Positions 1 through 48,300 of a stretch of 64,000 nucleotides of DNA are shown here, piece after piece. Source of the stretch: Taiwanofungus camphoratus (taxonomy: Eukaryota > Basidiomycota > Agaricomycetes > Polyporales > Taiwanofungaceae). Both the position numbers and the translations under genes were made by a program. The stretch's first letter is position 1. The number at the start of each line of letters is the position of its first letter. The notes beneath the pieces were generated by a model. That model saw only the letters and a list, made by a program, of their open reading frames with translations, made no database searches and was not told the origin of the DNA. The DNA lies in assembly GCA_003999685.1 (NCBI GenBank), contig CP021221.1:1860001-1924000 (forward strand). The letters run 5' to 3'.

Positions 1-644
1 TTGAGAAAGGTTAGGTTGATTGTTGACCAAGAGCTGTGTGCATGTGAGTAGAATGTCAGTTCACCTTTCTTGTTCTTGATTGTGTATCCGTTTTGCATTA
101 GCCAGTCTACTGTTTGTTCCGTTGATTCGTTTGCCGGTGTTGCGTGGCTTGACCATATAGGATGATGCAGGTTCCAGTCTCCCGATAGGATCACAGGTGT
201 GTCCTGTGGGAGGCAGACTCTTTGTAAGCATTTTGCGGCCGATTCCCTACCTTGTTTCTTATCATCGTTGTATATATTGACAATGATTGTTGACGGGTGT
301 GGGTTTTGTTGGACTTCAAGGATCTGTAGGTCAAGGTCATTTGCTAAATCTGAGCGAAGCGTTACCGTGAAGTCTTCTCGTTTTCGCACGTATGCCATGG
401 CTCTTGGTCGTCTTCCTTCGGGAACTGCTGACACTGGTATTATAGGAGTCCAGCCCACTGTTGCTTCTGATACTGGTCCATGGTTTCCCCCTCCGATGTT
501 CCCCCACCACGGTTCAGTTATCAGGATCAAGTCAAAATGTTCCTCTCCTACTGCTGCGTTGAGAAGAGAGTGTATTGCCTGGTTCTGGGTGTTGGCATTA
601 AGTTGTAGGATTCGTATTGGTCTCGTGTTTGTCGTCTCTAACAT
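1..644 (-). CDS. LINE ORF2, N-terminal endonuclease domain (partial)
   Basis: About 214 codons are open from an ATG at 644-642 to the window edge. The N-terminus contains RILQLNANTQ and then LILITEPWWG, the entry motifs of exonuclease-endonuclease-phosphatase (APE-like) LINE endonucleases. Further on come IIVNIYNDD and SGDWNLHHPIW, the latter carrying the conserved D-x-N-x-H-x-x-W catalytic signature, and STINLTF where the family has S-x-x-D-L-T-F. The enzyme nicks target DNA to prime reverse transcription. The start overlaps the ORF1 stop in the heptamer ATGTTAG, which suggests translation by termination-reinitiation. RT and RNase H regions would lie left of the window. Confidence 0.85.
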   Translation of the reverse strand, partial: MLETTNTRPIRILQLNANTQNQAIHSLLNAAVGEEHFDLILITEPWWGNIGGGNHGPVSEATVGWTPIIPVSAVPEGRRPRAMAYVRKREDFTVTLRSDLANDLDLQILEVQQNPHPSTIIVNIYNDDKKQGRESAAKCLQRVCLPQDTPVILSGDWNLHHPIWSSHATPANESTEQTVDWLMQNGYTIKNKKGELTFYSHAHSSWSTINLTFL

Positions 645-2551
645 ATTGTCTCCTCGTCAGTGATCATCGATTGTTGGGTTCGTGGTGCTTCTGTTTGTCG
701 GACCGCCTCCAACGTTGCTACTGCTTTTGCAAATTCCCCATCTGCCTCGTCCATTGCACTCATCTTCCTTGCCATGTCAATCTCCGGGAATCTCAGGTCA
801 AGTGAGTGTAGTGCGTTGGCTTGGATCTCGTCTTCAAGTTTTTGGAATCGGTTCTGTGTCATTCGTGCGTCAGTAGTGGTCTTACTGTTGCGTCTGTACC
901 TTGTTGTTTCTCTTCCTGTTGCCTTTTCGCTCTCCTTCTCCTTTTGCTCATGTTGTTGTCGGTTGCGAGTAACCATGTTCCATGCTCCCGTGGTCATTCC
1001 ATTGTTCATGGGTGGTCTGGTTGGTTGCGTCTTTGGCATGCCTACCTTGTGTGAGCGGACTGGGCAGTTCCTGAAGTTTGCCGTGTGTGGTCCTTTGCAC
1101 GCTGCGCAGGTATAGTCGTGTTTGCATTTGTCTAGGTCCATCGGGTCTTCACCCTGCTCTTCCGTGCATTCCTGGCAAACGTGGTCAGCCTCTGCATGCT
1201 CGCCTGTGCATAGCCTGCATATGGTTTTGTTTTTGCATCTTCCCCCTGAGTGGTCGAAGGACCAGCAATTGTTGCATTGGAGTACCGGTGGTCGGTCTGC
1301 ATATCTCTTTACCTCTGCAAATCGGCCTGCTATGGCTAGATTTTTGATTCTCTTTACCAGGTGTTCTGCGTCCTCTTGGTTTGCCAGGGCAATGACTACT
1401 GAGGAATAGAAAAGTTGTTTTAGGTCTGATGGGTGTCGCATCCATCTCGGGAGCTGTAGGATTTCCATTTTCGCATAGTCTGGGTTGTTGTCCTAGAGTT
1501 CTTGGTGAATTTCCTCTGGTGTTGGTATGTTACTGGTGTTTTCGTTCCATGTACTCACGCCGTTAACCTGTATCTTGTACCATGGTCTATCTGCCCGGAC
1601 TCGCGTCGCCCGGTCTCCTGCTATTCGTTCCGTAAATCTATTAGCGAATGGGATCAGCTCGGTTGCCTGTTGGTCAGCCCGTACAAACACAATGCAGTTG
1701 TTTTGTGGGTTGTACTTTACGTTTACAACCCGTATGTGTTTACTGTCTTTGTACTTCTGCAGTTGTTCATTAATGTCTTGGACCGTCTGCGCTTCTTTGG
1801 GTCGTTTTCCCTCAGGTGCACCATCCTGAATTTCTACAATGAGGCGGGAGGGGTGGTGTGCTGCTAGTGGGTTAGTCGGTAGGGTTTTGCCTTTTTTCAT
1901 GTCTGTTGCTGGGTTGCGCGCCTTTGGGACTATTGGTCTACTGACTGCTCGGACGTTAGTTACGGTTGACGGTATGGTCTCTGTCTGGGGTGGTCTCGTT
2001 GGTGTGCTTATCTCTGTTACTCTTGCCTCATCTCTATCCTCTCCTCTTTTCCTGCTTGTTGAGTCCCCTTGGTTGGTTGCCCTCGTTGAGTATGCCAGTT
2101 GCGATTCTATCTGGTCCATTCGTGTTGTGAGCTTCGCAAGCGATGTTGCTATCTGTGCAAGGTGATCCATTCCTTGGTCTTTAGCGTTCTTTGTTGTTTT
2201 GTTCTCTCCATGGGTTTGTCCATTTTGGATTCCAGTCTGGTTGCGTTTGTCGGTGCCTAGTGTGAGTCTCTGAGTGATGATCTTTGCGCCCTCTAGGATA
2301 GTTGTGGTGAACTCAGCGTGATTTGACATTTGGCTCAGTATCTCTGTTACCCCCTTCATCGCCTCTTCTAGATCTCTCATCATATCCTTTCTTGTTTTCT
2401 TCTTATCGTTATCTGTTATCGTCTCCATCTCGTGATCTATTTCACTATTAGTATTGAATATATCTGTGTTGAACTCAGCGTCAGGTGGGTCGTCATATGA
2501 TACTACACTTCTATTGTCTCTTTCGAGGTTTGATGGCGTGGACTTGTTCAC
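638..2551 (-). pseudogene. LINE ORF1, gag-like zinc-knuckle protein with in-frame stop
   Basis: One reading frame spans 2551 to 638 and is interrupted by a TAG at 1493-1495. Upstream of 2551 the same frame stays open to 2959 apart from a TGA at 2558-2560. The first half is charged and low-complexity, followed by a stretch with an RRM/gag-like feel. The C-terminal half has three zinc knuckles: CNNCWSFDHSGGRC (C-x2-C-x4-H-x4-C), a second degenerate one, and CAACKGPHTANFRNC. Such knuckled proteins bind the LINE RNA. The apparent start at 2551 is a GTG, so the true start is probably further upstream or lost. Confidence 0.75.
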
Positions 2552-2959
2552 CTCCTCTCATGTTAGCATTATTCCTTCCATGGTTCCTTCCTGTCTATGT
2601 TTTGTGGGTGTTTTCGTTAGTCGCTCTCTCAGTCTTTTGGTTATTGTCTGTTTTTTCGGGGTGCTCGGTGTGGTCACTGTGTTATCAGCTTCCTTTCTCA
2701 CTCTCCCTTTTTCTATTACACTATTTACACTCTCGTTCCCCTTTTTGGGGTACGGGTTAGGTCTGTGACCTTGTTGGCCAATGGCCTCGTCTTTTGGCAT
2801 GTTTCTATGTGTGCAGCACCTTTTTTTTTTCTGCTTTTTTCCGAGCGTGGGAAAATGACAGCTGTTGGTGGTAGCTACCAGAGAAGCGGTTCGGCTGTTG
2901 ATAGCGGCAGGGAGGGGGTTGCGACGATGACGCGGGTGGGGTGCCTCGCGAGATGCCAT

Positions 2960-17035: not shown

Positions 17036-20000
17036 ATGACCGCGACCCTATACGACTTCGACTCGACCCTCTTGACACAGGCGACAATGGACAAGCAAGA
17101 CGATTGGAATGCTTTACTCCAAGATCACCCTATATTTTTTACTCCAAAAAGTGTCTCAAGGTCTGGTGGGAAAAGCGAAGCATCACTTGAACTCTCGCTG
17201 AGCTCCTTGCCTGACTTCACGGATGTGGATCCTATGAATGACAGACCAACACCCTCGGGGAGACGCCGCGCAATGGTCGTCAAAGACTCAGACATAGTCA
17301 TTGCTGTCGGAAGCGAGATTCGCATGGCTGCTTTGGGAGATGTCAAACTTAGTAAGGGCGCACGAAAGTCGTACAAAGTGTGTGTATTAGAGGTTTAGTA
17401 TATGTATGGTGTTGAGTTTAGACGGGCGAACAGATTCTGCATACGCCAAACTTACAATTTGACGTCCACCAAATGGTGCTCAATCCGAACAGCAAACTGT
17501 TAGCTGTAGCTGGCGCTTTCCAGGTAGCGGTGATCGTGTTGCCCCGAGCCGGATTCACCAAACTAGTACCTACGACGGTAGACTGCAAGTACGCTCTCGA
17601 AAAAGTTATCTCATGAATGGTGCTGATTGAAATGAATCCAGATCTATTCAGATAGGGCAATTCTATCATGCAGCCGACACGTCCGTGCCAATAGCCAAAA
17701 TTGATTGGCACCCATGGGGCGAGGGTGGCTCTACACTTATGGTGATGACTATTGATGGCAAGCTAAGGTAGACAATTCAACTACAGCGAAATGGGCTTCC
17801 TAATGCTTAAAATGTCACCCAGAGAGTATGATATCTCCATAGATGCCGAGGAACCCCAACAAGTCCTATCGTTTGTGCCAGAAAAGAGAAAAAGTTCCTT
17901 CTCTGCAGGTGACGAGTCCGAACGAGAAGTCGCATCCTTCACTCTCGGTAAAGGCAGGGCCGACTGGGGCCCTCTGAGTATTTATGCGGTCATGAAAAGT
18001 GGAGACATATATGCGATCAGTCCGTACATGCCTAAGAATGCGTGCGTAGCCATTTCGCGAATCATTTATCCATTGTCTCAAAGAAAGTGCAGCTCATTGC
18101 CATCGTCGTATGTACACGCACTGGAATGCTTTGTTGCCGCCAAACAAGAATTCCTCTTCAAGTCGCATGACGAAGGCTCTTCGAGCACTTTGTCGACCCT
18201 TTATGATTACCAGCACAAATACGTGAACGCTTTACTGAAGCAGCTCCCCCCAGGAACAGCGTTTCCTGCCGTTTCACGCTCCATCCCTATGCGCCCGCCA
18301 AATACCGTCAGAAATCCTCCAGTCCGTCAGGGTCCGTTTCTGCTACAGCCGTCGCCACGCAGTCTAGAAGGAAGTGAAGGTGGTGACGCCACAGATATTT
18401 TGTACTTGGCTTTTGAGAGGGACGTAGAAGATGGCGCTGGGAGCGAGACGGAACGACTTGCGGTTCTGCTGATTACGTTCCAGGATGGGAGAGTAGATGT
18501 TTGCTTGGATGTAGAAAAGGTTGAAGCACGTTGGGAGCATAAGCAGGTTTGGCGTTCCTCCTCAAGGTGCCTCACGCGCTCTGATGTAACTAATCCATTA
18601 GCCACCTGATAGCGACCTCCCGATGCTGGCAGTCTACGAGACCATCGACCTTGGCATCATTTCCACACTATCTAAAGTGACTGTAGCTAAGTCAGAACCT
18701 CCGATACTGGAACTTATTCAAGGTAATCATCCAGTGTTTCTGCTCGATCCAATTCACGACGAAACAATATACGTGTATCATGCGTTCGGCGTTCATGCAC
18801 TACAGCTAGGCCCCATGCTGCGGAGTCTTGCCGTTGCTTTGCGTAATAATGCTGATAATGGCGACGATGCTGGCTCGCTTGAAGAGGTGCTACATAATTG
18901 CAACGGTGCAGATGTACAGCCTCTCCTGTCCACGTTTTCTGTAGAGCGGAGGTATGTAAACAACGACTTTGGGTGATGCTCACATGCTAATGCGACAATC
19001 GTATACAGATGCTCGAACCCAATAGTGGGAGTATCGATACCAAATGACGTGTATCTGACATATAGCATTTTCATCTTGACCTCCGTCATGCGCATGACCG
19101 TTTTGCCTCTGAATCTTCGCCCCGACTCGCCCTATTCGGTAACCTCAGACTTACCATCAATATCTGAGAAGTCACCTCCGCCGAAGTCACCTGCCACGCC
19201 CGACGAGCCGCCCGCATATGTCTCCCTTCTTGGTTCTGAATCTTACGTTCCTCCCCCCATCTTCAGCCGCCCTTCATCCAACCCGCGGCTTTCCCTTCCG
19301 CCATCCTCCGACCTTAAATCAGAATTTATGCTGACACCTGACACACTACGTTTTCTGGGCACAGCCGTCGAACGTTTCGAAAGCCAGATTCATGAGGTAC
19401 AATTGGCACGTCGCGCTGCAGAGGCACGTGCGGAGCTGCAAGAGCAGGAGTTTGCCAGGCAGCGGGCGAAATGCCAAGAGATGTTTGACATGATGTCACG
19501 GTCGAAGGGCTTGCGACGCGTTGCGACGAAGGAGAAAGTGATAAAGTTGCAACATACGCAGAAGATGCTGATGACGCGGCTGGATAGGGTATTGCAGTCA
19601 TTGATGGAGAAGGCATCGCCAGAGCTGAGTGATCATGAAACAAAGTGGTTTGAAGAACTTAGGAGGATGAAGGAAGAAGTTGTTGGTTCCAGCAAGTATG
19701 ATAATAGATCCCTTGCAGCTCGAACGAAACTGGTGTGTGACGCGTCTCACGCGCTTGCAGTCTTTTGTCTTTCGAATTGGTTACTAACAGCGACGCAGCT
19801 GCATAGAGAAATGGACAGACTCCTTCCTGACCTTAAAGAAATGAAAGAACGGGAGAGGAAAAGAAGACTCGCGGAGAGTCAGGAATCACTGGGGGTTTCC
19901 CAGGCGTTCGAACTCGGAAAGCTCTCCAATGAAGAGTACGTCATATTACACCTGTTATTATATATGTGTGTCTCAAATACTTGAGGCTTTAGGGGCGTTA

Positions 20001-35355: not shown

Positions 35356-36505
35356 ATGACTGTCATGACTTCCAACATACTTGACCCTTCTGCACTGATC
35401 TCAGCTCTTCCAGGTGTCCTACCGCCGACAAAACAGAGGCTCGAGTCTCCTCAGGATGGCTTGGCTGCTCTCATTCACACTGCAATGGTTGCTCTGGGAT
35501 TTCGATTGATTGCGGTCGACGAATCCTCCCCTGCGCGCACGATTTTGAATAGCGTTCTTCCTGACGAATGGAACCAACATGGTCCCAGTAATTTTACGTT
35601 CAGATACAGACACGAGCAGAGCAGTCTCGAGTTCCTCGTGAAAGTAGTCAAACTGGGCTCTCGAACTTTGATCAATTCAATCGCTGTCGAAGTAAGTCGT
35701 TGAATTTAAAGTTCCTGTTCCTTACCTCATCGCTCTGTTGTTCAGAGCGATAAAGCCGCCTCCATGGATATCGCAACAAATGACTTCGTTTCACCTTCCT
35801 TTTTTCCTCGTGATCTCGGTGCCGCCGAGGCGCAACCTCTCGTCCACGGTTTTATCTCTTCCAACCGAATTGCAGATCTCATGTCTCAATTCAAGCTTAC
35901 TACGGTCCAGAAGCTGGTCCCTGGTCTTCGCAAAGAAGGCTATACCGAGCAGTCAACAGACTCGTCTACAAACGCCGGCGCTAGCCAGCCCAGGACTGAA
36001 GTCCCCCCTCCCGTACGACCGCAGCCAAACGACCCTCCCTACCCTCCGGATCGTTCAACGCCGTATAATCCTCCCTACAATCCACTTGAGATTGGCAGAC
36101 GGGATCTAGACCCGTTCCCGCGCAACCCATTTGCACCACCGTCGCTGTTTCCGGAAAACGGAGGCGACGGCATGTTCGTGGGCCCGAATCATCCCATCTT
36201 TGGCGGTGGTTTGAGAGGACAGGGACCTGGAGGGAGGGGCCCTTGGGGAGGCGATGGCTTCCTGCCACCCATGGGGGCCCCTCCAGGTGCTCGATTTGAC
36301 CCTGTCGGACCTCGTCTGGGTCCATTCGGTGGGCCACTGCCAGGAAGGGGCCCTCTTGGAGGCAGTGGCAGGGGAATGCCAGGCGGCGGAAACATGCGTG
36401 ATCCTGACCCTGACGAGTTCATGCCACCTGGAACGGTAAGTAGACTTCTGATAGTATGATTGTCAGCTAACCGGACGTCTTTGATAGGGAGATATGTTTA
36501 TGTGA
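35356..36505 (+). CDS. FUB1: Proteasome regulator PI31 (Fub1/PSMF1)
   Basis: Binds the 20S proteasome and influences its activity and transport. Exons 35356-35691, 35746-36435, 36488-36505. The N-terminal PI31 fold spans residues about 10-170: DGLAALIHTAMVALGFRLIA, FTFRYRHEQSSLEFLVKVV, DFVSPSFFPRDL, NRIADLMSQFKLTTVQKLV. The C-terminus is Pro/Gly/Arg-rich (GRGPWGGDGF, PFGGPLPGRGPLG) and ends DPDPDEFMPPGTGDMFM, equivalent to the DPDHLPPPGYDDMY-type tail of PI31 that enters the core particle. The final exon codes only GDMFM. A Met at 35365 is an alternative start. Confidence 0.85.
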
Positions 36506-37937: not shown

Positions 37938-40900
37938 CTAACGGGCGTGCACCGGGCAACTCCGCCCTCGTTGAAGCCAAGACGATAAACAAGCTTGGAT
38001 AAGGAGCATTGGTCAATCCAATAAGTACAAGCCAACTCAGCGTGCGCACCGTTGTGAAAGCTGCATAGACAACTTAGTCGAGCAACAGTAGAACCTAGTA
38101 TACTTCTTAAGCGACAATCTTGTAGAGAGGATCACGAAGGCCTACCTTTCACGAACTCCTCAAGGCAAATTACACCTAAGTAATGGAAGTGAAGTGAAGA
38201 AACACGTTGATCATTCTAGGTCACGATGACTCACATTCAACGCCAATCAAAGCACTCTCTCCTGGTAGCTTATATACCAGATATTTTGCCGTCTGGGGAG
38301 GTGTCGCATTGCCGCCTTCCAAACAATTCTTGACATGCGCTTCCTGCTCTGAAGCAGGGCCAAGATCTGCAAGGTTTGTATTGCAGACAGGGCATCTAAG
38401 TAGGGATTAGGCCATGCTCCGGCAGGTAACGTAGAGGCTAGACTTACTCAGCCAAGTCACTTAGTTGTGAGCTCGATTGACCGCTCGAGGGACTGGGAAT
38501 GGTCAACCTGCCTTGATCAATTACTATGCGCTCCATTGACGTGGTCCACGCGGTACGCAAGCCGTTAGGCACACTCGCAGTGACCTCTTCATAACACGAG
38601 CGACACACTCGTTGCTGTGAGGGTGCTTGAACCATCTCAGGGAAAGATGGATCATGTACTACATCAAAGGGGTCAAGGAGTGTCCTGTAGGAGGAACATC
38701 GGTCGCAGAAAATGCGGCCACATCGGCGGCAATGCTGACAATGACTTTCAGGACCTTTGGGAGCACGAACTGCAACATTAACTCACATGCTGAGTAAGGT
38801 TGGGCATTAGTATACAGATCTATACAATTAGATCGTGAACTTACCCTTCGAGTCAGGAAGTTGAATCTACGACCGCAATCACGGCACTGACTGACAGTCT
38901 CGTCTCTTTCCCATTGAGTATGGACTGGATGAGGCGTGGGGGGAGTCCATCTGGGCGTAAGGACCTTCTGGGGAGCTTCATGAGTTGGAACACGAAAGTC
39001 AGGGGCTTGCGAGAGATGAGAAGTCAAGTCTGTAGGTGCTCTAGATGTACCGGGCCGATAAAAGTAGTCTGTCGATGAAGATCGTATTGACGGCGGTCGA
39101 GGAGTATCGTCAGTCGAAGCACCCGGATAATGAAATTCATCATCAGAATCCTCATCATATAGCTCATCATCCTCTGGGTTGCACAGTATCAGTACATTGA
39201 GACATCGGTGTTCGTGAAAACTATCAAAAAGTATGACTCACCATCTCCAGAAATAAGGAGACCCTGTGCATCAGCAGATGATCTTTTTCTCTCCAGTTCT
39301 CTGGTATACGCGTTAAGCAAGACCTCTGCCTGAGTTTTGCGCTCCATGTCATCATCACCTGCGAAAATGAGTATCGTATCTAGATATGCTGGGAAGGCTT
39401 TTACCTATAATGCCTTGTTTGAGTTCTGTGGTAGCGCGCTCTAGCTTAGCTATAACACGTCGGGCCTCGAGCGCTGAACTAATCCCATTGGTTGAATCCG
39501 CATCCCCATACTGTGTGCCCGCTAGGTAGCGCGCGCGAGCTACGTAGTCCTGCGCAGATGACATACTCCGCGCGATACCCAACTCCTGGCCTTCACCGTC
39601 CCCGAAATCGCTTCCATCGTCTTCGACATAAGGAATCAACGAACCGTCTGCCGCTAGATGATACATAGCTCCATCCGGTTGAAGGAAGGGTAACGGAGGT
39701 ATGTCCAGCCTCCGCCGCATTACTCGAACCCAGCGCCGACGTCTGACCCAAGTCTGCGAACTCAGGGAGTCGCGACGTGAGCTCGAGCTCGAGCTTGCAG
39801 CACTGTTACTCCGAGATCTGCCGGTACCGAGACCGGCTGTAATTGCACCGTTACCATCGAGGAGGCGCTCAAGTTGAAGAGACTGTTCCGCTGTCCATTG
39901 ATCATCAGCATCATCGAAAGCATGAGCATACTGCCAGCCGTCATCTGCGTCTACTCCGGGATGCGTTACATCGAGGGCCCAGTCTGACCTGGTGCAAGGA
40001 TGTGAGCTGCATCACTGACTTAAGAGGCCAGAAGGCACTACAGAAAGCTTACAGCCAGAAATGACTCCTCTCTGCACCTTCTCTGGACGAGCCCGGTCTA
40101 GGCAACGTCCAAGGATCTTCCCGTAGCGGTAATTGCACATCGCTGCGCCAGGCAGGCACTTCTTTCCTCCCCGTCCTCTCTTCTTGCACGGACAATCGAA
40201 GCTCGAAGGGTGCTCTACGGCCGCGTCTACCTAGTCCTGACGCGGAGAACTTAGGTCGGCCGCCCGACACCGCGAGCGTTTTCAGTCGCATGTCGAGTCG
40301 CTGATTCTCGTATAGAACAAGGGGAACAGTGGTATGTACAGCCAGCAGATTGTACGGCGTATGGGAACCACCATGCCATTGTTCAACTTCCGTTTTTTGG
40401 AGTACCTGATTGATATTAATCCAAATTTTTGACATACCGACGTGACGTTCGTTCGAAACGTACCTCACATATCCAAATTTCAAAGACCGCTGCGGCTGCA
40501 TCATATGCAGTCTCGCCCCAATTATTTCTGACAAAAGGATCGGCGTTTTGTTTAGTGAGAAGATATAATACAACAGGTAGGTGGCCTTTGGATGCAGCAT
40601 TCACTGACAGAGACGACGACTGTCAGCGAATAGTAAATGCATTGGCATGTGGATTGAAAACGCACTGAGAGGTGTCCAACCACCTTTACTTTTGATGTCA
40701 ATTCCACGAACACCATCGACATTCGAGGCTGCATCCCCATGTTCGCAAAGCCACCTCACGATATCCAGATATCCCTGTAGAATATGAGATTGGCCCGTCA
40801 TGGCGCTATACTAAGAACTACCTTGGAGCAGGCGTTGTGCAACGCAGTCCATCCGTCCGCATCTTGCGCTTGAACATCTGCTCTGTCTGGTAACAAATAT

Positions 40901-41477
40901 GTGATAATGGAGAGATGTCCATGCAACGCAGCTTTGTGCAATGCCGTCTATCTCTGAGAGTAAGCGCAACATAGGGAGTTGATAAGTACCTCGCTTCACA
41001 GACTAACCTCGCCTTCCCGGTCCTCAATATCAGGCATAGCTCCACATTCTTCCACCACTGAGTACCATAGAGATCAAGAGAGGGACACGCACGTGTTGTA
41101 AAACACGTACACCACTTCACAATGTTCAAATATCCTCTGCTAGAAGCCGCATGCAGAGCAGTGAGACCAGTACGAGGGGAAGCATCGTTGGCAAGAGCGA
41201 AGGATTCGATATCGCCGGACTGAATCACGTTCCTGAAGACATTTTGCACCCGCTTCAATTCTCCTGAAACAGCCGCTGCATGAAGAGCCTCTAGGTCGGC
41301 AGGTGAAGGGGGGTTCTTGGTCGGGATCGGGGATGCAGCGACTGAGAGTGATTGTGGCTTCATTTCTGCTATCGGAGGATGATCGGGAGTGCCAGGGTAG
41401 ACAAATTCTGCCTCTTCGGGCGGATCCAGCGACGCGCCAGGGTAGACGAATTCCTCGTCGTCAGAGTCTTCACGCAT
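37938..41477 (-). CDS. Ankyrin repeat - DysF - FYVE - RING protein, putative membrane-targeted E3 ligase
   Basis: One spliced frame of about 12-14 exons. The N-terminus has two copies of EFVYPG(A/T). Then come about five ankyrin repeats (TGLTALHAASSRGYLNIVKW, ETALHKAALHGHLSIITYLL, DGWTALHNACSKGYLDIVRW, GWTPLMNAASKGHLPVVLYL). Next is a DysF/Peroxin-like domain: VLYENQR at its start, LSDWALDVTHPGVDADDGWQ in the middle, WVRRRRWVRVMRRRL at its end. A third YPGAS motif follows, and then a FYVE finger (CRDCGRRFNFLT, RRHHCRRCG, CDRCSS) that should bind PI3P on endosomes or vacuole. The C-terminus is a RING (CVICLEEF ... CSFHNACLSSWL ... CPVH). Yeast Pib1 pairs FYVE with RING; the ankyrin and DysF parts are additional. 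The stop is at 37938. Confidence 0.82.
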
Positions 41478-43347
41478 TGTTGATGCGTGGGGGACGGGAG
41501 ATGCAGCAGTGCTTGCAATCCTGATCGTGATGTAAATAGTCGGACACGCTCATGCTACGATGAACTCGAGTAAAATTTATTAAGTAAAGCACTCACTCCT
41601 GTATCGTCCCTAGCAGGTATTTAGAATCACCATTCATGATCATCTCCAGCAAGACAGAGGTAACAAACGAGCAGCGCACCAAGCTCCCGCAGGCGTGACG
41701 GAAATAAACATTTTTGCTTACGTAAGGGTCCAGCACCTGTTTTGGAAACTCACCGCTAACTTGGCCTTTATTGAAGTACTCAATAATATACGTTGAGAAA
41801 TAACGCCAAATAGACGATGGCCGATCACTAGCACTACTGACACTACGTCTGATTGTACCCCGTGTCATGTAGATTCAATGTACAATCTTATACATCTCGG
41901 TGATCTAGACGATGCCCTTGTGAGGCTCTCCGTAGGGCGAATCTTCAGAGGCAAAAAGAAAAACGAACACCATTTTGTGAGAGCGCAACTCAGCCATCCT
42001 CTGAAGACGTCCAGCTGCATATCGAAAGCTCCCTAATCGATGACAAGATGGGCAGATCAGTACCCGCTACCAAACTGCACAACATGACTTGTACAGTATG
42101 GACAACCTTGCCGTACAGTCAGACCGACGCGTGGTATCTGAATGGTTTATCTGATAACGATAAACCAGCGTTCCTTCGTACTTGGGACTGGTGATAGCAA
42201 GTAGAACACCACAGACGTATTGATAAGGAACGGCGACATGAACATCACTCACAGTAAGTATTGAAGTTGATGCGGTGCTACGGCGGCACTAAAGGGCCAT
42301 CATGAGGTGACGATTAGGCGGACATAACTAGAACAGCTTCTGGACTGTCAGTTCTCGGACATGACTGAACTGAATGCAACTAGACCTGTAAGGATAAGAT
42401 TTTCACGAGTAATCGAAGAGCTGTATTGCATTTGAGATGTTATTAGACCTTCCTCTGGGCACGCTCGGTTTGGATGGAGAGTCGATTCCATTCAAATCAG
42501 CGATAGCCTTAGGTCCTTCGTCAAATCTACCATTTTACCGGCTCACTCCTTCCCCAAGGTGATACATCTCTGCGATGGAGTGTCAGATGTCTGTATCAAT
42601 GGCGCGGGGGTAAGTCTGTCAAAGGGGATGCGAAAATACGTCTGCGACACAGCTAAATTCAGAGCGAATCGGGCCATAGGGGCCCTTCAAAGACAGCCTG
42701 CTGTGAACATAACAATCACTTCCCACAGGACGGTTTCCTGAAGTCATGGAGAGTCGCATCCATATGCGATGGCACTGGGCTTGTGAAAAGAAAGTAAATG
42801 TAACTATTCTGCCGCTCGCCATCCATATACTCCGTTTGGATCAGCCTCATGGAATGGACAGACGCCAAACGTGAATTGGACTTGGGCGCGTATGACCCCT
42901 AGTCAAAATGGAAGAGCCACCTGGTCTCTCACAGTGTTCTCGTAGGTGCTATACCCACGTCTAGCGAACCAGTGGGAGTAACGGATGGAACTTGAACACA
43001 ATCAGTGAGAACGTAGCACGACTCGCAGAGTAAGACATGCCACCTGGCACTGCCTGGGTAGTCGAGTTAACCTCGCATCGTGATCCTGGGCATTGGTGGA
43101 TCAAATCGTTCAAACCAGCATGCTCGTCGCCTCCGGGTACATTTTCGCATTTGATACGTCTCCATGGGGCACAGCACACACGCCGAGATGAATTCCATGG
43201 AATGTTGACGCCATGGCTGTGTGAAAGTACCCACACCAGGCTCGCGTCAACCTTGCCTAATATGCGGGAAGCTTGTGCGATCAGGTTGACGGAAGATTTA
43301 CTTAACATGTAGTGGAATCTCAGTAGTACTGATCTGGAAGTGCATAA
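41478..43347. other. 1.9 kb gene-poor stretch
   Basis: Upstream of the ankyrin-FYVE gene and of BNA3. A minus frame at 41593-41868 (about 90 codons, SSIWRYFSTYIIEYFNKGQV) and a plus-strand coding-like patch at 42440-42560 (MLLDLPLGTLGLDGESIPFK) stand out, but neither extends into a recognisable gene. Possibly remains of a decayed gene. The rest shows nothing. Confidence 0.35.
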
Positions 43348-45302: not shown

Positions 45303-48300
45303 CTAGCTACCCGTCTCTTCGTCGAGTCTGTCTACTATGCGTGAAAGCAACTCGTTGAGTGAAGTCGATGAGGCATCGTAATAGATCGGGTTGCTGCTCA
45401 GCCGGCGTGCGAGAAACGTAAATGAGAGCATGTCAACGGCTCCCTGCTTATCCACGATACTGCCATCTTTCCGTCGATCCGAGTACCACCTTCGCAGGAC
45501 ATCGGTTTCCAGCAATTTCGATTCCAGCGGAAGGCCATCGTTTAGGAACCGAGTAAATGTGTCCTTCCCTTCTGCTTGACAGAAGAGGTAGAAATGGCCG
45601 ACAGTGTGATGACGTACTGCACGACCTTGCATACGGACCAGCTCCTCAAAACCATAGTCACGTAGTTGGCGTTCTTCTTCCCCGGTAGCGTGCACATACT
45701 GCGTGCCCATGACGATCACGGTCGCCGCTCGAACAGGCAATGTCCAGCAAGTGTCTCGAGGTACGATGAGCACGCGCACGAGGCCGTCGGCATACAGTTC
45801 AAGGGTCAGCATTCGGTCCCCTTTCGTGATGCCTTCATGGAACAAACCTATGCCGCGTGTGATGAAATCCTCAAGAGTGCGATCTTGCAGTCTCGTGAGA
45901 TAATATTCTAGCTGTTCTGGGTTGACATCAACTGGGAGATACCCCTTGGCAGTCTCCGTCTCGAGCGCACACTGCTTGATCAAATCAAGACCAATCGAAC
46001 GGCATTGTCTATGGGATGGAACGAAGACAATTGCGGGCTCTCCTGGAGACGCTTGGATGGCCGTGTGAGCCGGCTTGATCATCGCCTTAAACAGGGCGGC
46101 GGATTGTGGAATTGTAAACGTCTGAATGTTCAAAGTAAGCGATTGGTCTCGGTCGCTCGGGAGGAAGCTGTGCAGAGATAGCGGGTCGGCATTGAGCCAG
46201 GCTGCAAGATCTGCAGGATCACTCATGGAACTTGACAAACCGATGAATCGAACTGGGTACGCTTGCGTAGCGCGTAGGAGCAAAGACACGCCGAGTTCGT
46301 ATTCAGAATCTAAGAACTCCAGGTTTTCGCATACGACCAAAGACAGTCCAGAGAACCGTGTAATGCTCTTCCGCCAGCCCGATATAGCGAGAAATAACTC
46401 TGTCACGGTGATTACACGGACAGTCCTTCCCTTCCGTTGCGAGAAGACGGTCTGAGCTGTCGAAAGCTCCACAGGGACATTCGTGACTTCCGATATCGCT
46501 CGCGTTTCTGTGATCAAATCTATTGCAAGACTGCGTCGTGGCACAATTACGAGGATCCAAGAATCAATGGGCGCTTTTCGCAATGTTTCCCTGAGTATGC
46601 ACGTCAGCCTGCGGGTGGTATGGTACCAGGTTGATCACACCATACCATACTGTCATATAACCCAGGGCAGACTTGCCGCATGCTGTTGGAGCGCACACCA
46701 AGGTATGGAGCCGTGTCTTGATGAGACTCCAAAACACTTGCGTTTGAATTGCATTAAACCCATTCATTCGCCGCGAATAGATGTTTTCAAGATGAGGGTT
46801 TTGCAAGGTGGAAAGGGGAAGAAATGGAAGATCAAGGCGGGGTGTGTGACATTCAGAAGATACCGGCATTGTCAGCTTTCCGAGTGGGATTGAGATTTTG
46901 TCTTCAGCGCCCATCCACTTGTCAGAAACGAATCGAACTGTGACCGAATTAGGCGGTTTGCTGTTTGCTACGGATATCACGAAATCGACATCCAACGCGG
47001 CAGTGGCTTGTCGGAAGATGAGATGAGATAACTGTAAGATGGTGAGACCTTCCTCGTCTTCTATCCATAGCCAAAAGGGCTCAGCAGAACCGTGTATCGT
47101 GCGGCTCCAGTCGAATTTTCGAAAAACTCGAACAGCTATCTTGAGAACGTCAAAACCTAGCGGACGGAGGCTATAAGAGATGTCCACAGTAGGAAATTGT
47201 TTGGCTGCATCGTGAATTGCTGACCCATGCTTTTCATTTAGATGAATAAGCTGGCCCAACTGCAAGGGGGTCATTTCAGCTAGATCTGCAATATCGTAGT
47301 CATCAGCCCATCTCTCGAGGCCATAGAGGATTTCGGGCTTCAACTTGAATGCTCGTAATGGATGGTTGAATGGCCACATTCGTTTTTCAATCGCCTTGCT
47401 CATTCCCATGAGCACTGAACTGACATTTGCCCATTTGCAACTGATAGCTATCTCTAATAAGGCTCTCACAATACGCCCACCATTCTGTGCAACGTATGCC
47501 TGGTCCGAAACCAATGCAAAGTCCTGTGGTGTGAAACCGGAGATGTAGCTTTGAAGTAGGATGTTGACTTTTCCCTGGCTGGTGTCCGTACCACCCTAAT
47601 TCTTGTAAGCTTTTTTTGCACTGTCATGCAGAAAGGCCTCACTTTAACAACACAAGGATTGGACTCCATTAACTGCTCCAATTCTTTGACTTCTGCTTCC
47701 CGAAGTTGGACTTGATCAAACTGTGTTTGCTTCAGTCAGAAGTAGGTAAGGTAGATGTGATCGTACAGACCTCCGTGCTCGTACTGAGCATGGCTAGTAC
47801 GTCGGCTTCAGTCATTTTCGATCTGAACGCCTTATTAAACTTTTCGATGGACGCATACTTAATGTAGTATTTGGCGGCGATACGACCTAAGTCTGTTATC
47901 ATGAACGTGCCATTCTGCTTGTCGAAGGTTATCATGCGAGCTTCTGCAAGTCTTGAGGCCGCCTCGATGACAAGCTGGCTACGCTTATTGACCAGATATG
48001 GATCTTCCTCCACTTCCTCTCGAGTGAGGCCTGAAGCCGAAGTCAGACTCTTCAAAAGGACACAATCTTGGACAATTTCAAACCATATTGGAAAGGATTT
48101 TTGCGCAAGCGCACAACTAGATAAGTATAACCGACCCATTGAACCGCATCGTGGACATTGGAAACAGTCCCCAAGGCGATTTCTGCATTCAAAGCATCAA
48201 TCATACCCGCCGTGAACCTAAGTCAAGTGTCGTGAGATAACATAGGCGAAGAAAGCTAGGCAAGACTCACCTGGATTCGATGGGATTCTGAACAATTGCT

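What the first reader, a model, noticed from the sequence alone, without database searches (positions are those of the whole stretch)
37938..41477. Four-module protein: ankyrin repeats, DysF, FYVE and RING in one chain
Sequence shows ankyrin repeats, a DysF/Peroxin-like domain, a complete FYVE finger with RRHHCRRCG, and a C-terminal RING, spliced in one frame. Yeast Pib1 is a FYVE-RING ubiquitin ligase of endosomes, and DysF domains occur in Pex30-type ER/peroxisome proteins and TECPR1. Uniting PI3P binding, a DysF module and ubiquitin ligation with an ankyrin cargo-binding part would make a ligase placed at membrane contact or autophagy sites. The three EFVYPG/FHYPG motifs, two at the N-terminus and one between DysF and FYVE, form an extra repeat with no known role.
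Basis: partly seen in the sequence, partly recalled or inferred. Interest (0 to 1): 0.8.

Follow-up and report, generated by a model that had tools for sequence, protein, structure and literature searches.

The report
Fungal endosome–mRNA adaptor protein (Upa1-type)
This fungal gene looks like a relative of Upa1, a known adaptor that hooks travelling messenger RNAs onto moving endosomes, and it appears to carry an extra lipid-binding-type domain and a one-codon exon that the Upa1 papers consulted do not mention.

Summary
One minus-strand gene (41477→37938), 15 exons and 14 GT-AG introns of 46-68 nt, reads in frame for 918 aa: ankyrin repeats, FYVE (Pfam 6.5e-20), RING (6.3e-9). DysF is not a Pfam hit (best Pex24p E 0.091, under cut-off). 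With a 40-aa insert trimmed, its best PDB matches are the DysF domains of TECPR1 (0.0032) and dysferlin (0.11); untrimmed and reversed queries find nothing.
The interpretation changes. The "EFVYPG/FHYPG" motifs match PAM2L, with which Ustilago maydis Upa1 binds MLLE3 of the mRNA transporter Rrm4 (PMC4466420, PMC9249222, PMC12518507). With ankyrin repeats, FYVE and RING this makes a Upa1-type endosomal mRNA-transport adaptor more than a contact-site ligase.
New relative to the Upa1 passages seen: DysF, a third PAM2L, no canonical PAM2, and a 3-nt microexon supplying one histidine of RRHHCRRCG. A C2HC finger pattern precedes a ZNRF1-like RING. Splicing, partners and functions are inferred. No fungal relative could be fetched.

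The parts
37938..41477 (-). Whole coding region, 15 exons, 918 aa, Upa1-type protein
   Evidence: Manual splicing with 14 GT-AG introns, continuous frame; splice-site scores
41436..41468 (-). PAM2L motif 1, DSDDEEFVYPG (residues 4-14)
   Evidence: published core in PMC4466420
41388..41417 (-). PAM2L motif 2, EEAEFVYPGT (residues 21-30), a second N-terminal copy; acidic run broken by one Ala
40388..41171 (-). Ankyrin repeats, five by eye (residues ~103-270), over exons 1-6
   Evidence: Pfam Ank_2 2.4e-44 and others; Ank (PF00023) 4 stretches, Ank_4 5 stretches; PDB ankyrin/DARPin matches (60 of 462 shown)
39694..40324 (-). DysF-like domain (residues ~292-480) with a low-complexity insert (about 418-457); the C-terminal half is best supported, the N-terminal strand is uncertain
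   Evidence: PDB TECPR1 0.0032 and dysferlin 0.11 with the insert trimmed (0.0029 and 0.21); Pfam Pex24p subthreshold; no match untrimmed
39118..39156 (-). PAM2L motif 3, DEDSDDEFHYPGA (residues 622-634), about 70 residues before FYVE
   Evidence: comparable place to the second PAM2L of U. maydis Upa1 (948-958, before FYVE)
38983..39021 (-). Degenerate PAM2-like stretch around LSQAPDFRVP (residues 667-679); spacing does not fit the PAM2 consensus
38579..38916 (-). FYVE zinc finger (residues 702-778) with RRHHCRRCG
   Evidence: Pfam FYVE 6.5e-20; PDB EEA1 1.2e-11
38787..38789 (-). 3-nt microexon CAT encoding one His of RRHHCRRCG, between introns of 55 and 52 nt
   Evidence: FYVE 78.3 bits with it and 68.3 without
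38320..38394 (-). C2HC zinc-finger-like stretch CPVC...H...CL (residues 823-847) before the RING
   Evidence: C, C, H, C fall in register with ZNRF1 5ywr, but adding the stretch does not raise the score over the RING alone (59.3 against 60.0 bits); no Pfam family above cut-off
37947..38235 (-). C-terminal RING (residues 876-916)
   Evidence: Pfam zf-RING_2 6.3e-9; ZNRF1 RING 7.7e-16
41521..41643 (-). Possible extra 5' exon (41597-41643) and 76-nt intron (41521-41596) that would add 30 residues
   Evidence: In-frame GT-AG reading only; not needed for the model

Best explanation
A Upa1-type endosomal adaptor of a filamentous fungus, probably a basidiomycete. FYVE should bind PI3P on early endosomes. 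Three PAM2L motifs (two at the N-terminus, one before FYVE) should dock MLLE3 of an Rrm4-type RNA transporter, so that mRNAs and ribosomes ride on moving endosomes. The ankyrin block should hold further partners. The C-terminal RING, most like that of ZNRF1 among solved structures, is probably an accessory E3, perhaps working with a Ubc13-type E2. The DysF-like domain may add a second lipid contact (phosphatidic acid or sphingolipid, as in Pex30 or TECPR1) and so bias which membrane patch is held. Shown here by sequence: gene model, modules, motifs. Inferred from U. maydis: PI3P binding, Rrm4 binding, mRNA transport. Speculative: the DysF lipid and the RING's E2.
For: Module set and order match published Upa1: ankyrin repeats, FYVE, C-terminal RING, a PAM2L near the N-terminus and one shortly before FYVE. 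All three motifs keep the essential Phe, a Tyr two residues after it (MLLE3 contacts a conserved Tyr), FxxP spacing and acidic residues before the Phe. Three matches are more than chance gives (0 of 200,000 shuffles; the 3 six-frame matches in the 64-kb window all lie in this gene). The Upa1 paper names relatives with PAM2L in Coprinopsis, Coniophora, Laccaria and Auricularia (figure legend). DysF: TECPR1 and dysferlin are the best PDB matches of the trimmed segment, reversed control empty. RING: ZNRF1 7.7e-16.
Against: No direct alignment with any Upa1 protein: none is held, and scans of viral contigs (full protein) and genome contigs (C-terminal 253 aa), made for close relatives only, found none. 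The canonical PAM2 of U. maydis Upa1 is absent from the protein and from 1.9 kb upstream. Motif 2 has Ala inside the acidic run and motif 3 has His where the core has Val. Whether this genome has an Rrm4 with MLLE3 cannot be seen (no genome held). DysF is below Pfam's cut-off in each version tried and rests on a trimmed query. No transcript data.
Confidence: 0.83

Rival explanations
1. One reading: mainly a PI3P-guided ubiquitin ligase for contact or autophagy sites, ankyrin repeats choosing the substrate, DysF placing it; the FxYPG repeats are incidental.
For: FYVE and RING are both clearly present; the RING is closest to ZNRF1 among solved structures, and the fly ZNRF1/2 homologue is reported to regulate autophagy and HOPS ubiquitination (passages); DysF of TECPR1 and Pex30 is linked to damaged membranes and contact sites (listing; passages).
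Against: The FxYPG motifs match a motif with measured binding and a solved complex. In U. maydis the RING is dispensable for the tested functions, while PAM2L and the FYVE-containing part are required.
Confidence: 0.1
2. Only a Pib1-like FYVE-RING protein whose acidic FxYPG motifs bind some other MLLE or unrelated protein (for example PABP or UBR5 type).
For: MLLE domains also occur in Pab1 and UBR5, and UBR5 has its own PAM2L-like stretch. The presence of Rrm4 here is untested.
Against: U. maydis Pab1 MLLE shows no binding of PAM2L peptides. The position before FYVE and at the N-terminus is that of Upa1.
Confidence: 0.05
3. The DysF-like stretch is not a DysF domain but a disordered Trp/Arg-rich linker between ankyrin repeats and PAM2L.
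For: Below Pfam's cut-off in each of five pieces tried; no PDB match without trimming; low-complexity insert inside it; Met in place of the stack residue R1046 of dysferlin.
Against: The two best PDB matches of 177,635 sequences are both DysF; reversed control empty. 5 of 6 C-strand stack arginines and W1042 of dysferlin's table are matched by eye. A loose signature, whose tolerances I chose knowing the candidate, occurs in 7 of 200,000 shuffles.
Confidence: 0.15

Closest known systems
Upa1 of Ustilago maydis (UMAG_12183) and its basidiomycete relatives
   Same: Ankyrin repeats (five), FYVE, C-terminal RING, PAM2L at the N-terminus and before FYVE (PMC4466420)
   Different: 918 against 1287 aa; three PAM2L instead of two; no canonical PAM2; DysF-like domain ('DysF' occurs 0 times in the main text of PMC4466420 and PMC9249222). 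Whether U. maydis Upa1 also holds one was not testable.
Yeast Pib1 and mammalian Rififylin (FYVE-RING ligases)
   Same: FYVE plus C-terminal RING (comparison made in PMC4466420)
   Different: That paper contrasts them with Upa1, which has PAM2, PAM2L and ankyrin repeats
ZNRF1/ZNRF2 and Drosophila detour
   Same: RING of the CLC-x2-H...CPxH pattern (5ywr, 7.7e-16); a C2HC pattern in register before it
   Different: The finger adds nothing to the score, so its kinship is unproven. 5ywr covers only finger and RING; I did not compare the rest of ZNRF1.
TECPR1, dysferlin and Pex30-family DysF proteins
   Same: DysF C-terminal half: W-SDW...GWxYA...RRRxWVR-like
   Different: Here the domain carries a 40-aa insert and sits between ankyrin repeats and PAM2L/FYVE

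Membership tests
Upa1 (endosomal mRNA-transport adaptor) | PAM2L motifs: acidic residues + F-x-Y-P, at the N-terminus and before FYVE | tested here: met
   Three matches, F at residues 10, 25, 629; motif 2 has one Ala in the acidic run, motif 3 His for Val
Upa1 (endosomal mRNA-transport adaptor) | Five ankyrin repeats | tested here: met
   Pfam: Ank 4 stretches, Ank_4 5 stretches; five TxLHxA-like units by eye, the fifth divergent
Upa1 (endosomal mRNA-transport adaptor) | FYVE followed by C-terminal RING | tested here: met
Upa1 (endosomal mRNA-transport adaptor) | PAM2 motif for Pab1 (present in U. maydis; reported dispensable there) | tested here: not met
   0 matches to L[NS]xxAxxFxP in the protein or in the six-frame window; only a degenerate LSQAPDFRVP
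Upa1 (endosomal mRNA-transport adaptor) | Orthology by sequence tree | not testable with these tools
   No relative fetched
Upa1 (endosomal mRNA-transport adaptor) | Binding of Rrm4 MLLE3 and shuttling on endosomes | not testable with these tools
   Needs experiment
DysF domain | Profile match above curated cut-off | tested here: not met
   Pex24p 6.8-12.2 bits against 26.8
DysF domain | Best similarity to solved DysF domains | tested here: met
   TECPR1 0.0032 and dysferlin 0.11 with insert trimmed, 0.0029 and 0.21 in a longer version; none untrimmed
DysF domain | Arg/aromatic stack residues in register | tested here: inconclusive
   By eye against the table: 5 of 6 C-strand Arg (Met at R1046) and W1042 matched; Trp spacings differ by 1-2 residues; N-strand uncertain
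PI3P-binding FYVE | R(R/K)HHCRxCG core | tested here: met
   provided the microexon is included; the consensus itself is recalled
ZNRF-type finger-RING | C2HC finger before RING, as in ZNRF1 | tested here: inconclusive
   Cys/His in register but the extended query scores 59.3 bits against 60.0 for the RING alone; finger alone has no Pfam match above cut-off

The most novel reading that the evidence does not exclude
The adaptor is a two-lipid, multivalent endosome-mRNA tether. FYVE reads PI3P and DysF reads a second lipid, so mRNA-carrying endosomes can be held at contact sites. Skipping or including the 3-nt exon, which keeps the frame, switches RRHHCRRCG to RRHCRRCG and so turns endosome binding, and with it mRNA transport, on or off.
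Probability: 0.08. Interest if true: 0.85.

Novelty: new variant of a known kind. Interest (0 to 1): 0.47.

Why it matters
It turns an unexplained motif into a testable claim: this fungus should run Rrm4-type mRNA transport on endosomes. If the DysF-like domain is real and common in Upa1 relatives, the mRNA adaptor would carry a second membrane-reading module, a possible physical link between endosomal mRNA transport and membrane contact sites. The one-codon exon inside the PI3P-binding core is a warning for gene prediction, and a possible switch.

Tried and rejected
Relatives: viral contigs with the full protein (7 pattern matches, 0 confirmed by tblastn) and genome contigs with the C-terminal 253 aa (27 pattern matches, 0 confirmed) gave nothing; both searches reach close relatives only. 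No whole genome is held. NCBIfam hits (8 families) on the N-terminal 483 aa lie in the ankyrin part, far under their cut-offs, and were dismissed.

Alternative splicing of the FYVE region: by eye on the sequence, only the microexon form and a single 110-nt intron (RRHCRRCG) keep the frame to the end of the protein. The microexon form scores 10 bits better against FYVE. AG-CAY-GTRAG, a pattern written after seeing the site, arose in 45 of 200,000 base shuffles of the 110-nt stretch, and occurs twice on the minus strand of the window and not on the plus: here and near 18988. So the pattern alone is not proof. Splice-site scores: intron 9 donor 9.9 (above the 1.4-9.4 of the 12 other introns), acceptor 6.0; intron 10 donor 5.9, acceptor 4.1 (others -0.8 to 6.5). 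But 4.5% of 3,675 minus-strand GTs score at least as well as the intron 10 donor, 3.2% of 4,233 AGs as the intron 9 acceptor, and 19% as the intron 10 acceptor. The matrix rests on 12 introns of my own model, so this is weak.

The ZNRF1-like finger: I first took the longer alignment as support, but the score does not rise when the finger is added, so I list it as a pattern only.

N-terminal DysF strand: both VLYENQR (residue 296) and APFELRLSVQEERTG were tried; neither settles it. A PAM2 upstream of the ATG was sought and not found. No tRNA in the window.

I did not send the spliced protein.

A paper on conservation of endosomal mRNA transport in fungi (Müller 2019; the DOI tried was recalled) is not held.

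Full report
What is there. The finding lies in a single gene on the minus strand. Splicing by hand at 14 GT-AG introns of 46-68 nt gives 15 exons and an uninterrupted 918-codon frame from 41477 to 37938. The short, frequent introns, and a neighbour that matches the fungal potassium channel family KCH (7.1e-20), fit a fungus. The class is not established by any search. Basidiomycete is inferred from the match with Upa1.

Modules. Pfam gives ankyrin repeats (Ank_2 2.4e-44), FYVE at 702-778 (6.5e-20) and RING at 875-915 (6.3e-9). FYVE alone finds 15 PDB sequences at E<=0.01, EEA1 first (1.2e-11). The RING's best solved match is ZNRF1 (60.0 bits, 7.7e-16). Extending the query upstream puts a CPxC...H...CL stretch in register with the finger of ZNRF1, but the score does not rise (59.3 bits, 3.5e-15) and the stretch has no Pfam match above cut-off.

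DysF. This is the weakest of the named modules. Pfam offers only Pex24p: E 0.18 for a 219-aa piece, 4 and 0.75, then 0.71 and 0.091 for trimmed versions, always far under the cut-off of 26.8 bits, and not listed at E<=1 for the whole protein. The 213-aa segment with its insert finds nothing in the PDB. With the 40-residue serine-rich insert removed, a 59-mer finds three PDB sequences at E<=10: TECPR1 DysF (0.0032), dysferlin DysF (0.11) and a multiheme cytochrome (1.1). A trimmed 108-mer finds only the first two (0.0029 and 0.21). The reversed 59-mer finds none. Held by eye against the aromatic/arginine stack tabulated for dysferlin (PMC3898210: passages, section 6 read in full), 5 of 6 C-strand arginines and W1042 are matched, with Met at R1046; Trp spacings differ by 1-2 residues. 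A loose signature, with tolerances that I chose knowing the candidate, occurs in 7 of 200,000 shuffles. I call it a divergent DysF domain with about 85% confidence. The N-terminal strand remains unplaced.

The motifs. F-x-Y-P-G occurs at residues 10, 25 and 629. [DE]F.YP occurs three times in the six-frame translation of 64 kb, each time here, and in none of 200,000 shuffles of the protein three times. The Upa1 paper (PMC4466420; abstract and passages seen) defines PAM2L with core D/E D/E D/E FVYP in a FYVE protein with five ankyrin repeats and a RING. It maps one PAM2L to the N-terminus and one to 948-958, before FYVE, shows that they bind Rrm4, and that mutating both abolishes function. PMC9249222 (passages) measures 5-15 uM binding by the MLLE region of Rrm4, dependent on MLLE3, and none by Pab1 MLLE. 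PMC12852828 (passages) says that MLLE3 contacts a conserved tyrosine. PMC12518507 (passages) gives the peptide DEFIYP in PDB 8S6O. The motifs here, DEEFVYPG, EAEFVYPG and DDEFHYPG, keep Phe, Tyr and Pro; the second has Ala inside the acidic run and the third His for Val.

The microexon. Intron 9 (38844-38790) and intron 10 (38786-38735) enclose three bases, CAT. With them FYVE reads RRHHCRRCG and scores 78.3 bits; without them RRHCRRCG and 68.3 bits. Both forms keep the frame. The matching pattern arises in 45 of 200,000 shuffles of the 110-nt stretch. The four splice sites are no weaker than the weakest of the other 12 introns, though such scores are not rare in the strand at large. Microexons in fungi have been described: 6 bp and up in Phanerochaete P450 genes (PMC1184071, passages), and a 20-nt switch in Trichoderma (PMC11121469, passages). 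In the listings of my searches I saw no report of a 3-nt exon in a fungal FYVE gene (15 of 12,811 papers listed, 0 papers, 3 papers). RNA evidence is lacking.

How it likely works. By analogy with U. maydis: FYVE anchors the protein on PI3P-bearing early endosomes, PAM2L motifs hold Rrm4, and Rrm4 carries mRNA. In U. maydis the RING is dispensable under the tested conditions. The ZNRF1-like RING suggests a Ubc13-type E2 partner. This rests on titles in a reference list (Behera 2018 on ZNRF1 and Ube2N; Renz 2020 on Ubc13-Mms2 and yeast RING proteins; seen only in the list shown). DysF domains of Pex30 and dysferlin bind phosphatidic acid, and that of TECPR1 appears to bind sphingomyelin (PMC12101078, abstract and passages; PMC10476172, search listing only). 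A second lipid contact is therefore a reasonable guess here.

Membership and novelty. The protein meets the architecture of Upa1 but lacks its canonical PAM2, which U. maydis can do without. Orthology could not be tested by a tree. 'DysF' has no occurrence in the main text of PMC4466420 or PMC9249222. In PMC12852828 the single word-start hit lies in a passage on mitochondrial dysfunction. Searches combining DysF or dysferlin with FYVE, RING, ankyrin or Upa1 listed no paper that by title or abstract start describes DysF in Upa1 (15 of 3,176 listed, 10 of 15 listed, 3 of 3, none holding Upa1). DysF may be general in mushroom Upa1 proteins and simply unremarked, so 'variant' is relative to the passages seen.

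Limits. No transcript, no relative and no genome were available. The gene may also have an extra 5' exon at 41597-41643 that would add 30 residues.

Noticed in passing
38787-38789 (-): A 3-nt exon (CAT) appears necessary for the full FYVE core RRHHCRRCG; skipping it keeps the frame.
   Followed up: partly
   Followed up: partly
41521-41643 (-): Possible upstream exon and 76-nt intron in frame with the ATG at 41477.
   Followed up: partly
39046-39069 and 38983-39021 (-): Two degenerate F..P stretches (DYFYRPGT, LSQAPDFRVP) follow the third PAM2L at 22-24 residue spacing; may be decayed PAM2L/PAM2 copies.
   Followed up: no
35710-36456 (+): PI31 proteasome regulator gene (N- and C-terminal Pfam domains).
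   Followed up: no
45306-47595 (-): Sec63 Brl (5.5e-48) and SNRNP200 winged-helix (3.1e-7) matches in adjacent frames, suggesting a Brr2/ASCC3-like helicase.
   Followed up: no
3-2557 (-): Long reading frames at the left end; the first (not scanned) reads like a retroelement endonuclease by eye, the other two have no Pfam match above cut-off.
   Followed up: no
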